From Nitrosarchaeum sp. (lineage in GTDB: Archaea; Thermoproteota; Nitrososphaeria; Nitrososphaerales; Nitrosopumilaceae), in assembly GCA_021414365.1 (NCBI GenBank), contig JAIOOR010000013.1, positions 62,001-126,000 on the forward strand: 64,000 bases of DNA, written 5' to 3'. The position numbers and the translations under genes were made by a program. This document shows, in pieces, positions 15,467 through 52,155 of the stretch. The notes under the pieces are model-generated. The model was given only the letters and a program-made list of their open reading frames with translations. It ran no database searches and was not told the origin of the DNA. Every line of letters starts with the position of its first letter. Position 1 is the stretch's first letter.

Positions 15467-15604
15467 ATGCCAGACACCGAAGAGGAATTTGCAATTTGTA
15501 TAGAGTGTGGAAATTCAATTGAAAAATGTGTCTGTGTCTGTCCATACTGTGGTGAACGTGATAAGTGTGAATGTGTATTGTTTGACTCATCTACAGGTGG
15601 TTAG
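15467..15604 (+). CDS. 45-residue cysteine-rich metal-binding protein
   Basis: ATG at 15467, stop at 15602-15604. Eight cysteines in 45 residues, read as CIEC, CVCVCPYC and CEC, preceded by an acidic N-terminus (MPDTEEEFA). The two CxxC groups and the CxCxC core suggest a zinc ribbon or small metal-cluster protein. A TATA-like TTTATAC lies about 27 bases before the ATG. It lies 53 bases before the ferredoxin oxidoreductase genes on the same strand. Function unknown. Confidence 0.75.
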   Translation: MPDTEEEFAICIECGNSIEKCVCVCPYCGERDKCECVLFDSSTGG

Positions 15605-15657: not shown

Positions 15658-17568
15658 ATGGGCTCAGTTGATTTTACTTGGTTAATTGGAGGTCCACAAG
15701 GAAGTGGAGTTGACTCCGGTGCTAATGTTTTCTCTAAGGTATGTGCTAGTATGGGATACCAAATTTTTGGTAAGAGGGAATTTTACTCTAATATCAAAGG
15801 AGACCACAGCTATTTCACCGTTAGAGTATCTGATGAAAAAATCCACTCAAACATAAATGATGTTAACCTAATAGCTTCTTTTGATGCTGAAACAATTTTC
15901 AGGCATTATGATGAAGTTTCTGCCGGTGGTGGAATCCTTTATGACTCTGATTTAACTAAAGTGACAGTCGATGAGGTACACACTCTTGATATTTATTTTA
16001 AAGAAAGACTGATTAAAGAATTACAATCTAAAAACAAACCTCTTACCATTGCAGGAGTTCTTGAGATTGTACAAGAAAAAGGCGTTAATCTTTACCCTGT
16101 ATCTTTTAGAGAAATTTTATCAACTCTTTCTGAGCAAACAAGCAATCCCAAAATAAAAGGAATGGTGAGATTATTTAATGTAATTTCAGTTTCTTTGTCA
16201 CTAGGGTTGATCAAAATGTCAATTGATCCTTTATTCAAATCACTTGATTCTATATTTGCAAAAAAACCACAGATAGCAGAAATCAACAAACAAGCAGGAA
16301 TTTTTGCATACGATTATGTTAAATCAAAATTTAACAATTTTCCATTTATTTTATCTGGAACCACTAAAGAACCTGATACACTTCTTGTTCAGGGTCACTA
16401 TGGTTGTTCTATAGGAAAAATGGTCAGTGGATGCAGATTTCAATCATACTATCCAATTACCCCAGCTTCTGATGAAAGTGTTTATCTTGAATCCAATGAA
16501 CTTTTGGAAGTTAACAATGATAGACCTGGTTCAACTGCTGTAATACAATGTGAAGATGAAATATCTGCAATGGGTATGATGATTGGTGCTGCGTTAACTG
16601 GTACACGTTCTTCTACTTCAACTTCTGGACCTGGTTTTGCATTAATGACTGAAGCACTTGGTTGGGCTGGAATAAATGAAGTTCCAATTGTAATTACTTT
16701 GTATCAGAGAAGTGGACCTTCAACTGGTCTCCCTACAAGACATGGACAAGATGACTTGTCATTTGCAGTCCATGCAGGACATGGTGATTTTCCAAAAATT
16801 GTTTATGCATCAGGAGATATTGAAGAAAGTTTCTATGATACTGGTAGATGTTTTAACTATGCCGATGTCTACCAATTACCTGTTATTCACATGATGGACA
16901 AATTTCTTTCAAGTTCTGTAGTAACATGTAAAGAATTTGATCCTAAAAAAATTACTATTGATAGAGGTCTTTTGCTTGAAAAAGTAGAAGGCGAATACAA
17001 ACGATTTGCTTTTACAGAGGATGGAATCTCACCACGTTCTAGGTTGGGAATGGATAACGGTGTATTTTGGAATACGGGAGATGAATCCGATGAATTTGGT
17101 CATATTTCAGAGGATCCAATAATTCGAATTAAAATGATGGATAAAAGAATGAACAAACTAGATTTGATATTAGAAAGAATTCCAAAAGATGAAACGGCTA
17201 TCTCATTTGGTGTATCTGACTATACTATAATTTCCTGGGGTTCTCCAAAGGGCCCAATTTTAGATGCACTTACTATGCTCAAAAAAGAAGGAATCAATAT
17301 TGGATTTGTTCAAATTAAATTAATTCATCCATTTCCAACTGACTATGTAAAGTTTCTTCTAAAAGATGCAAAAACCATCATAAATATTGAGGCAAATTAC
17401 TCTGGGCAACTAGGAAAAATATTCAAACAAAATGTATTGCGAAACATTGACTATTCTATTCTAAAATTTACTGGAAGAGGAATGACTAGTACTGAAATTT
17501 ATGATTCGCTAAAAAAGATAGTTGAAAATAAGGCAAACAAAAGGGAGATCTTAACTCATGGCGCTTAA
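15658..17568 (+). CDS. korA: 2-oxoacid:ferredoxin oxidoreductase, fused gamma-alpha subunit
   Basis: Together with the next gene it oxidatively decarboxylates a 2-oxoacid (2-oxoglutarate or pyruvate) to acyl-CoA and reduces ferredoxin, or runs in reverse. The first 190 residues are the gamma (CoA/ferredoxin contact) domain, starting [18 protein letters not shown]. The alpha domain follows from about 240 with [30 protein letters not shown] and [11 protein letters not shown]. The pyrimidine-binding C domain ends the protein. The length of 636 fits the two-subunit archaeal form. Substrate cannot be set from sequence alone. Confidence 0.92.
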
Positions 17569-49252: not shown

Positions 49253-50134
49253 ATGGATTTGAAAAAATTAGTTGAAGAGCAATCATTGGCAAACTCACCT
49301 GTTGGATTAGGCGGGTGTAGAACAACAAGTCTGTTTTTAGATTCATGTGATTACGATGTCACAATATTTGATGATAAACCTGAGTCAGATAAAATTATTT
49401 TACATGGTAACAGTTTTGTAAAAATTCATCACGGTTCATTAAAAGAAACCAAGTCTAATATTCTTGTAAAGTATGATGGGATGCAAATAATCCATGATGA
49501 GTCTTGGGAGCTTCGAATGTTTCTATCGAAAATTAAGGAAAAACGTTTGATGCTTTACAAAGACTATGCAAAAAATTGCCTCTTTGATTCTCTTTTCTTT
49601 TGTGAAAAAACCAAGAAAGGAATTAAAACTTCAAATGCTTTTTCATCATGTTGGCAAATATGTGCATCATATTTTTTAGCTGATGCTATTTGTTTGCTAA
49701 ATACGTATCGACCAAACCCAACCCATATGTTGGATGTAATGAGAAAATTTGAAAAAAATCCAATTAATGAGCAAATTTCTACAGTAACCCAAACTATAGG
49801 AATTGAAAGAGCTACTCCACTGCTATTGGAAAGAATACTCAAATCTACAATTGGGTTTTCTGATTTGATAGAAAAAAACAACTCAAAAATAATTCAACAA
49901 AAACATGATTTATTTGTAAAAAATTCCATGTTATCTGATTGCTACTTTTACATGGGATACATCAACCGAGACAACTTTGTAAAAATTAACAATAGTATTG
50001 ACCACCAGTCAGATCTTATCCATATCCTGAAGGTAGCTTTTGATATTGAGGCTGACTCCAACCTGCTTGAAAATAATGCAAAACTCATTCAAAAATCATG
50101 CACTTTCATACTCGGTCTTCTTTCTAGTGCGTAG
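49253..50134 (+). CDS. Unknown protein, possible nucleotidyltransferase-like N-terminus
   Basis: ATG at 49253 gives MDLKKLVEEQSLANSPV and 293 residues (TTG at 49217 would add twelve). GLGGCRTTSLFLDSCDYDVT, then IFD, recalls the GS-x10-DxD motif of minimal nucleotidyltransferases. The rest is helical with a Cys-rich middle and no membrane segment. The motif match is by eye only. It follows tRNA-Glu on the opposite strand and shows no operon partner. Confidence 0.75.
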   Translation: MDLKKLVEEQSLANSPVGLGGCRTTSLFLDSCDYDVTIFDDKPESDKIILHGNSFVKIHHGSLKETKSNILVKYDGMQIIHDESWELRMFLSKIKEKRLMLYKDYAKNCLFDSLFFCEKTKKGIKTSNAFSSCWQICASYFLADAICLLNTYRPNPTHMLDVMRKFEKNPINEQISTVTQTIGIERATPLLLERILKSTIGFSDLIEKNNSKIIQQKHDLFVKNSMLSDCYFYMGYINRDNFVKINNSIDHQSDLIHILKVAFDIEADSNLLENNAKLIQKSCTFILGLLSSA

Positions 50135-50186
50135 TTTTCTAAAGTCATGTACTAACATTTTAAAATAAGTAATGTGAATGTGTACT

Positions 50187-50330
50187 ATGACAGATCAAGC
50201 ATGTGGATGCGAAGCAGACAGCGGCGATCCAACTTATTCCTGCGATTGTGATATGCAAGGTCATTGTATATGCAGCGCAGATTGCAAATGTAAAACTGAC
50301 GTTTGTAAAGAAGCAGTTAAACAACTGTAA
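50187..50330 (+). CDS. 47-residue metallothionein-like protein
   Basis: ATG at 50187, TAA at 50328-50330. Nine Cys in 47 residues: CGC, CDC, CIC, CKC and one more (DVCKEA), plus one His (GHCIC). Acidic and Gly-rich at the start, Lys-rich at the end. CxC spacing with no aromatic core except one Tyr matches metallothioneins and not zinc ribbons. It would bind several copper or zinc ions. A short leader with GTGAATGTG precedes it. Confidence 0.8.
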   Translation: MTDQACGCEADSGDPTYSCDCDMQGHCICSADCKCKTDVCKEAVKQL

Positions 50331-50358
50331 ATAGTTGCTTTAATTTTATTTTTTCTTT

Positions 50359-50526
50359 TTAATTTTCTTCTTCTTCAAGTCCCCATGACTTTACTAATTC
50401 TTTTTGGAACTTGTCTGATTGTTTTCCATCTAATGCAAACCCGCAATTTTTATGAGTTGGAACTACTGTCATTCCGTCAAGTTTGAACTCTACTTCGTAC
50501 AAGTGAACTTTTGAGCACTCACACAT
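50359..50526 (-). CDS. 55-residue small protein with an N-terminal CxC
   Basis: ATG at 50526, stop at 50359-50361. Begins MCECSKVHLYEVEFKLDG, then PTHKNCGFALDGKQSDKF, and ends with an acidic tail. Three Cys and two His could bind one metal ion. Convergent with the metallothionein-like gene, 28 bases between stops. Upstream TATA-like sequence not clear. Not recognised. Confidence 0.7.
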   Translation of the reverse strand: MCECSKVHLYEVEFKLDGMTVVPTHKNCGFALDGKQSDKFQKELVKSWGLEEEEN

Positions 50527-50637: not shown

Positions 50638-52155
50638 GTGAATCAGATTCTAGTTGCATCTGCTTTTTTGATTGTTATGTTTAGTCTTGGATTTTCAAAT
50701 CTTTCATTTGGTCAAGGTGTCCAGACATCTGGTGGTGTTAATGTGGAGGGTTCTTGGTATTTGGGTGAAGGCCTCAAAGACGGAGATTATTTTGAATATT
50801 CTTTATGTCAATTAGACCTTCATGATTGTGCACCTATCACATTAAAAATGTGGGTCAAGGGGTTAGTGCAACATGGAACTGAAAAATTATGGGATACAGA
50901 AGTTGTAATTATTGATGGAAATAAAATTATTAAAGGCTCAATGGGTCTTGGTGACACTGCACCCGAACCTATCACATTTGATGAACCACTACATGATTAT
51001 GCTATTGCGTTCAAATCTTCTTTATCTTGGTTGTCTGCTTTTGCTACTGGAAATCCACATGACTTAATCCATGGACCAAAAGAATTCAAAGATGCAGCAT
51101 GGGGAAAGATAGGTGCAATTGGTGGTGCTCAATTAATTCCGTTACGAGCAGAAAAAATTTACACTCCTGCAGGATCTGTTGATACTATTGTTGTTGGTTG
51201 GTATAGTGGTAACAATAATGAAATCTGGATATCTGACGGTTTTCCTTTTCCTGTTAAAGCATTAACTTATGCATGGATTACAACTGGTGTTGCTCCTGTC
51301 ATGTTTCAGTTTGAATTACAAAAATATCAAGAACATGTTGTAAATGATCCTTTCATAAGTGTTGAATCAACCGTCTCAAAAACAGATTTGCTAAAATGTG
51401 CTACAGATTTCTATGAATATACAAGTGGTCGTCAATCTACAAATACACATACCATGATGATTCAGTACAATTATTCTCCTAAAGTACCAATTGAAGGATG
51501 TTTTATTGATTGGAAAATTAACTTTATGAATAAATACAATGATGTACAATTTGTTGATCAAGTACATTATGATATTTGGGTTGTAGATAATGATGGTAAG
51601 AGGTTACGTTCATACGCAGAAGACATTGGACGTGCAGATTTGTTTAATGGATTTGGACAAGCACATGTGCTTCTTCCAATAAAAGAAAAAGCGGGATTAG
51701 TACATTACATAATATTTGTTCATGGCACAGGATCAGAAATCGATGTTCCTGATGCATCAATGGGTGGATATGCTGCCATAGATGTTCAAATTGCTGAAAA
51801 CCCTCTTCTTGCAGGACTAGATGGTAATACTCCTTCAATTCCTGCATGGATTAAAAACAATGCTGGATGGTGGAAAGAAGGTAAAATTGATGATAATTCC
51901 TTTGTTCAAGGAATACAATATTTGATTAAACAAGGAATAATGAAAATTCCACCAACATCTCAAGGTGCAAGTTCTGCAGACAATTCAATTCCTGCATGGA
52001 TTAAAAACAATGCTGGATGGTGGGCAGAAGGTTCAATTGATGATAACTCCTTCATTCAAGGAATCCAATTTTTGATTCAAGAAGGAATAATGAAGATTCA
52101 ACAACCCTCCTCTACACCCAAATCCGGCTATCAACCTGAAACTCCATTTGGTTAA
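50638..52155 (+). CDS. Secreted protein with C-terminal IPAWIKNNAGWW repeats
   Basis: 505 residues from GTG at 50638. A signal peptide (residues 1-24, hydrophobic core SAFLIVMFSLGF) precedes a beta-rich extracellular domain of about 375 residues. Two copies of a 50-residue repeat end it, each starting SIPAWIKNNAGWW and containing DDNSF(V/I)QGIQ(Y/F)LI. The repeat occurs in many thaumarchaeal surface proteins (general knowledge) and may mediate anchoring or binding. Overall function unknown. Confidence 0.88.
   Translation: MNQILVASAFLIVMFSLGFSNLSFGQGVQTSGGVNVEGSWYLGEGLKDGDYFEYSLCQLDLHDCAPITLKMWVKGLVQHGTEKLWDTEVVIIDGNKIIKGSMGLGDTAPEPITFDEPLHDYAIAFKSSLSWLSAFATGNPHDLIHGPKEFKDAAWGKIGAIGGAQLIPLRAEKIYTPAGSVDTIVVGWYSGNNNEIWISDGFPFPVKALTYAWITTGVAPVMFQFELQKYQEHVVNDPFISVESTVSKTDLLKCATDFYEYTSGRQSTNTHTMMIQYNYSPKVPIEGCFIDWKINFMNKYNDVQFVDQVHYDIWVVDNDGKRLRSYAEDIGRADLFNGFGQAHVLLPIKEKAGLVHYIIFVHGTGSEIDVPDASMGGYAAIDVQIAENPLLAGLDGNTPSIPAWIKNNAGWWKEGKIDDNSFVQGIQYLIKQGIMKIPPTSQGASSADNSIPAWIKNNAGWWAEGSIDDNSFIQGIQFLIQEGIMKIQQPSSTPKSGYQPETPFG
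51838..52137 (+). repeat. Two 150-bp protein repeats (IPAWIKNNAGWW)
   Basis: The repeat at 51838-51987 and that at 51988-52137 have the same 50-residue period. The DNA is nearly identical over the first 40 bases and drifts later. Both encode IPAWIKNNAGWW followed by EG.IDDNSF. Selection at protein level with recent duplication would explain this. Confidence 0.85.

What the first reader, a model, noticed from the sequence alone, without database searches (positions are those of the whole stretch)
50187..50330. Metallothionein-like 47-residue protein in a copper-dependent archaeon
Nine Cys as CxC pairs and one His in 47 residues, preceded and followed by intergenic DNA. Thaumarchaea depend on many copper proteins and need copper buffering; archaeal metallothioneins are little described. 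Too short for most gene callers.
Basis: partly seen in the sequence, partly recalled or inferred. Interest (0 to 1): 0.75.

Follow-up and report, generated by a model that had tools for sequence, protein, structure and literature searches.

The report
Metallothionein-like protein in ammonia-oxidizing archaea
A 47-residue protein with nine invariant cysteines, missing from the protein-family libraries, is kept by almost every genome of one major family of ammonia-oxidizing archaea; it looks like a metallothionein that probably holds copper, and many of these genomes also carry a second copy tethered to the cell membrane.

Summary
Window 50187-50330 (+) is a real gene for a 47-aa, 19% Cys, acidic protein: four CxC pairs plus one single Cys. 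It is found in 132 of 136 near-complete genomes of the host's family (Nitrosopumilaceae by record titles), and essentially nowhere else in a 300-genome phylum sample. All nine Cys and their spacing hold in all 133 loci fetched. dN/dS is 0-0.16, gene order is conserved, and a leaderless promoter and T-rich terminator flank it. It matches no Pfam, NCBIfam or PHROG family and no solved structure convincingly. Its last seven Cys reproduce the Neurospora/Agaricus Cu-metallothionein spacing except the final gap (4, not 2). New here: (i) a second copy forms the C-terminal, predicted cytosolic tail of a signal-peptide/transmembrane protein in 26 of 44 family genomes; (ii) the family lacks stand-alone CopZ-type HMA chaperones (1 of 136) and Csp copper-storage proteins (none found), which soil ammonia-oxidizing archaea carry. 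Best reading: a cytosolic metal-thiolate buffer or chaperone, most likely for Cu(I), standing in for CopZ/Csp. That it is a real, selected, probably metal-binding protein is nearly certain. The metal is inferred; zinc is the main rival. Structure prediction was uninformative (pLDDT 52).

The parts
50187..50330 (+). 47-aa metallothionein-like gene, CxC-x10-CxC-x5-CxC-x3-CxC-x4-C
50150..50171 (+). conserved extended promoter TACTAACATTTTAAAATAAGTA (BRE/TATA about 25-30 nt before the ATG, implying a leaderless mRNA); flanking TACT...AGTA dyad is a possible operator
   Evidence: 99 distinct upstream sequences; A at -33 100%, TTT at -29..-27 95-99%, AA at -25/-24 99-100%; exactly one match with up to 2 mismatches in each of 5 genomes, always this gene, 0 in control
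50340..50369 (+). T-rich tract, probable archaeal terminator, present after the stop codon in homologues
   Evidence: inference
50359..50526 (-). convergent conserved 55-aa frame (MCECSKVHLYEVEF...), syntenic neighbour of unknown function; not claimed as part of the system
   Evidence: median 87% identity outside the genus
49253..50134 (+). upstream co-directional 293-aa syntenic neighbour (no Pfam or NCBIfam hit); not claimed as part of the system

Best explanation
The gene makes a small, mostly unstructured cytosolic protein whose nine thiolates wrap around a metal cluster. Shown: a real, strongly selected single-gene unit with its own promoter, invariant Cys spacing, and near-universal presence in this family. 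Inferred: the cluster is mainly Cu(I), and the protein buffers cytosolic copper and hands it on, taking the place of the CopZ-type chaperone and Csp storage protein that soil ammonia-oxidizing archaea use. Inferred: the fused copy is a type I membrane protein whose metallothionein tail lies under the membrane on a flexible linker and docks or collects metal there, while the stand-alone copy is the mobile pool.
For: 132/136 near-complete family genomes carry it, including 0.8-Mb reduced genomes; 44/44 family genomes in the phylum sample have the stand-alone gene and 26/44 also the fused copy. Nine Cys and spacing invariant. Residues 19-40 read CXC-X5-CXC-X3-CXC-X4-C in all 96 distinct sequences, versus CXC-X5-CXC-X3-CXC-X2-C in Neurospora/Agaricus Cu-thioneins (PMC4755600). 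dN/dS 0-0.16. Median identity outside the genus is 85% versus 45-78% for most neighbours. HMA occurs in only 31/136 family genomes, inside roughly 700-845-aa P-type-ATPase-sized frames; only one genome has a 79-aa HMA frame. Csp (PF03860) is found only in family f8, never in f1; f8 genomes carry 75-104-aa CopZ-like frames. N. [quoted passage not shown] Tail topology: signal peptide, one transmembrane segment, basic SNRSLK after it.
Against: No metal-binding or expression data. No copper gene adjoins either copy. The CopZ/Csp anticorrelation is one split in the tree, so it is a single event, not many. Non-Cys residues are unusually conserved for a metallothionein, which may mean a fixed fold and a specific partner rather than simple buffering. 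Nine Cys also fits Zn3Cys9. Cu-dependent soil relatives do without it. P1B-type ATPases are present in some family members, including the host.
Confidence: 0.55

Rival explanations
1. It is a zinc-type metallothionein: nine Cys hold a Zn3Cys9-like cluster that buffers zinc (or removes cadmium), with little role in copper.
For: Nine Cys match Zn3Cys9 stoichiometry; bacterial metallothioneins with known function include a Zn protein (SmtA) and a Cu protein (MymT) (PMC7387436). Many family members carry a His between CxC pairs.
Against: The spacing is nearest to fungal Cu-thioneins; the His is not conserved; the copper-handling gap in this lineage is otherwise unfilled.
Confidence: 0.25
2. It is a rigid structural Zn-Cys domain (CXC/pre-SET-like or half a UBR box) used to bind a protein or nucleic acid, not a metal buffer.
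For: High conservation of non-Cys positions (M1, D3, G7, E9, G13, D20, M23, Q24, D32 invariant in 78 distinct type A sequences); fused copies keep the domain; weak profile match to UBR boxes (E=0.015).
Against: 0 of 96 sequences fit the published CXC-superfamily consensus or its C-terminal Asn (PMC3447885); the UBR alignment covers only part of the domain and does not share the CxC pairs; the AF2 model has no confident fold.
Confidence: 0.12
3. It is a thiol redox or NO/ROS scavenger in which metal binding is secondary.
For: Metallothioneins can scavenge reactive species (PMC7387436) and these archaea are exposed to NO and peroxide (general knowledge).
Against: Strict CxC spacing is not needed for scavenging; no CxxC redox motif occurs in any sequence.
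Confidence: 0.06
4. Chance or artefact: a Cys-rich reading frame without a product.
For: Cys-rich frames do arise by chance (3/30 simulated windows).
Against: Family-wide conservation, purifying selection, promoter, fused paralogue.
Confidence: 0.01

Closest known systems
Fungal short Cu-thioneins (Neurospora crassa / Agaricus bisporus MT; PDB 1t2y for N. crassa)
   Same: CXC-X5-CXC-X3-CXC Cys spacing over the C-terminal seven Cys; small Cys-rich protein
   Different: Last gap X4 instead of X2; an extra N-terminal CxC and a conserved acidic N-terminal segment; a C-terminal KEAV segment; acidic; no detectable sequence homology; archaeal
Bacterial metallothioneins PF02069 (SmtA, Pseudomonas MT)
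   Same: Small cytosolic Cys-rich protein, nine Cys as in SmtA and Pseudomonas MT; possible hairpin plus C-terminal helix in the low-confidence model
   Different: No PF02069 match in 41 genomes; no C.C..C.C motif; no conserved His ligands
Mycobacterial MymT
   Same: Small prokaryotic Cu(I)-thionein, a functional analogue
   Different: Different Cys spacing and no homology (from memory; not aligned here)
CopZ (HMA) chaperone and Csp copper-storage protein of soil AOA
   Same: Proposed role: holding and passing cytosolic Cu(I)
   Different: Unrelated folds; complementary distribution
CXC / pre-SET Zn3Cys9 domains
   Same: Nine invariant Cys within about 45 residues
   Different: Cys order and spacing and the terminal CxN signature are not met

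Membership tests
Metallothionein (functional class) | Small protein, high Cys content in CxC / CxxC motifs | tested here: met
   47 aa, 19% Cys, four CxC
Metallothionein (functional class) | Conserved Cys array under selection | tested here: met
   all nine Cys in 133/133 loci; dN/dS 0-0.16
Metallothionein (functional class) | Binds several d10 metal ions in thiolate clusters | not testable with these tools
   needs recombinant protein and mass spectrometry
Metallothionein (functional class) | Metal-responsive expression | not testable with these tools
   unique conserved promoter dyad seen, but no expression data
PF02069 bacterial metallothionein | Match to the family profile | tested here: not met
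   0 families for the protein; 0 of 41 genomes, control rings in Synechococcus
PF00131 eukaryotic metallothionein | Match to the family profile | tested here: not met
   2 of 15 members match weakly, best E=0.018; window protein none
Neurospora/Agaricus Cu-thionein (family 8) | CXCX5CXCX3CXCX2C | tested here: not met
   0/96 exact; 96/96 with the last gap 4
CXC / pre-SET superfamily | CX[C/H]X2-13CX4-7CXCX5-60CX2-4CX1-2CX2-15CXN | tested here: not met
   0/96, consensus from PMC3447885
UBR box | Profile-level homology over the whole box | tested here: not met
   E=0.015 over 30 residues of a 77-aa chain only

The most novel reading that the evidence does not exclude
Nitrosopumilaceae, among the most abundant cells in the ocean, replaced the CopZ/Csp copper-handling set with a home-grown Cu(I)-thionein that acts as a dedicated copper chaperone for their copper enzymes, together with a membrane-tethered form that docks the metal at the membrane.
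Probability: 0.3. Interest if true: 0.85.

Novelty: new variant of a known kind. Interest (0 to 1): 0.68.

Why it matters
Ammonia oxidation by these archaea drives much of ocean nitrification and depends on copper, yet how most of them hold cytosolic copper without CopZ or Csp is open. A universal, tiny, unnamed Cys protein with a membrane-bound sister form is a concrete candidate and is testable in culture. It would be an archaeal metallothionein family, for which no paper was found in the held library, and a membrane-tethered metallothionein domain is unusual.

Tried and rejected
Pfam, NCBIfam and PHROGs scans gave nothing for the protein. PDB searches gave only weak UBR-box matches, judged chance or, at most, a minor rival. 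AlphaFold2 on the 47-mer (pLDDT 52) and on the fused protein (pLDDT 32, 8 sequences) was too poor for fold searches, so none was run. The viral contig scan and phage tblastn were empty. The plasmid hit in haloarchaea proved to be the Cys region of a permease with a different Cys arrangement and E=0.7. Literature: no paper on metallothioneins in ammonia-oxidizing or other archaea in the held library. The gene neighbourhood gives no functional hint: neither copy adjoins a recognisable copper gene. The promoter element does not mark a wider regulon: one site per genome.

Full report
OBSERVATION. The frame at 50187-50330 is as described: nine Cys in 47 residues as four CxC pairs plus one. Cys richness alone is not proof, since 3 of 30 simulated windows held such a frame. 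Conservation is. Same-genus genomes differ by 4-8 synonymous and 0-3 non-synonymous changes, and dN/dS stays at or below about 0.16 out to other genera.

DISTRIBUTION. A profile of 15 diverse members finds the domain in 132 of 136 near-complete genomes of the host's family and 18 of its 20 genera, including 0.8-Mb reduced genomes. The four misses are draft assemblies. In a phylum sample of 300 genomes, all 44 hits at E<=0.001 are in this family; the only other hit is E=0.004. Record titles of matching loci are Nitrosarchaeum, Nitrosopumilus, Nitrosopelagicus, Cenarchaeum and unnamed Thaumarchaeota, so the family is taken as Nitrosopumilaceae and the window as Nitrosarchaeum or close. Two MAGs titled 'Nitrososphaeraceae' (L039, L080) carry Nitrosopumilaceae-type copies in the usual synteny, probably mislabelled bins. 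Family f8, which lacks the domain, is taken as Nitrososphaeraceae from genome size and gene content (inference).

SEQUENCE. All 133 loci fetched have the nine Cys, with spacing 1-10-1-5-1-3-1-4, or 1-9-1-5-1-3-1-4 in 6 of 96 distinct sequences. Two subtypes exist: type A (DQACGCEADSGDP) and type B (DAACGC, one residue shorter). Many non-Cys positions are invariant in type A, so the protein is less free to drift than metallothioneins usually are; median identity outside the genus is 85%, against 45-78% for most neighbours. The convergent 55-aa neighbour is equally conserved (87%).

ANATOMY. The gene sits in conserved order between a 293-aa co-directional gene and a convergent 55-aa gene. Ninety-nine distinct upstream sequences align without gaps on a BRE/TATA box about 25-30 nt before the ATG at 50187. 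This implies a leaderless transcript and supports that start codon. A 22-bp extended element, TACTAACMTTTTAAAAYAAGTA, occurs once per genome in five genomes tested, always here. Whether it is an operator is unknown. A T-rich tract follows the stop codon.

SECOND COPY. A homologous domain ends a roughly 456-aa protein encoded elsewhere in the host genome (L002). That protein has a signal peptide, a Cys-free outer domain, one transmembrane segment followed by basic residues, a linker (Pro-rich in Nitrosopumilus-type members) and then the Cys domain. By the positive-inside rule the Cys tail is cytosolic (inference). 26 of 44 family genomes have both copies. The outer-domain family also occurs in families f2, f3 and f8, where the Cys domain was not detected, so the tail looks like an addition made in this family. 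In several Nitrosopumilus-type genomes the fused domain is type A, close to the stand-alone type and often still carrying its start Met (TPTMIDQACGC), whereas in Nitrosarchaeum it is type B and about 48% identical to the stand-alone copy. Gene conversion or repeated fusion would explain this; it was not tested with a tree.

COPPER CONTEXT. Soil AOA have CopZ, CopA and Csp (PMC7785015), and an earlier genome paper found the CopZ/P-type ATPase cluster in Nitrososphaera but not in other AOA (PMC4084955). Here, HMA occurs in 31/136 family genomes, inside ATPase-sized frames with one 79-aa exception. Csp occurs in 14 f8 genomes and in no f1 genome. Stand-alone 75-104-aa HMA frames are common in f8. 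So the lineage that has this protein lacks the usual soluble Cu(I) carriers. This is a single evolutionary contrast, not independent replication.

MECHANISM. The last seven Cys have the CXC-X5-CXC-X3-CXC array of Neurospora/Agaricus Cu-thioneins, with the final gap four instead of two. Most likely the protein holds a Cu(I)-thiolate cluster and buffers or passes on cytosolic copper. Zinc remains a serious rival. The strong conservation of non-Cys residues suggests a partner surface, which favours a chaperone role over passive storage (inference).

LIMITS. No expression or binding data. Structure prediction failed. Genome names are hidden for the handles. The literature library is open-access only, so absence of papers is not proof of novelty.

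Noticed in passing
50359-50526 (-): Convergent 55-aa frame (MCECSKVHLYEVEFKLDGMTVVPTHKNCGFALDGKQSDKFQKELVKSWGLEEEEN), median 87% identical outside the genus, no Pfam or NCBIfam hit; not detected in the Nitrosopelagicus-type loci L060, L064, L065, L091 and L102.
   Followed up: partly
15467-15604 (+): Another small Cys-rich frame (45 aa, MPDTEEEFAICIECGNSIEKCVCVCPYCGERDKCECVLFDSSTGG) just upstream of a 636-aa gene starting at 15658; conservation not tested.
   Followed up: no
L002:283-1638 (host genome C4): Outer-domain family of the fused protein: Cys-free, no Pfam or NCBIfam hit, found across families f1, f2, f3 and f8 but not in most other families of the order; a candidate conserved surface protein of unknown function.
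   Followed up: partly
50638-52155 (+): 505-aa predicted secreted protein with IPAWIKNNAGWWxxGxIDDNSF repeats, fast-evolving (median 45% identity) although its position is conserved.
   Followed up: no
L039, L080: MAG records titled Nitrososphaeraceae carry Nitrosopumilaceae-type copies in the usual synteny; probably mislabelled bins.
   Followed up: no
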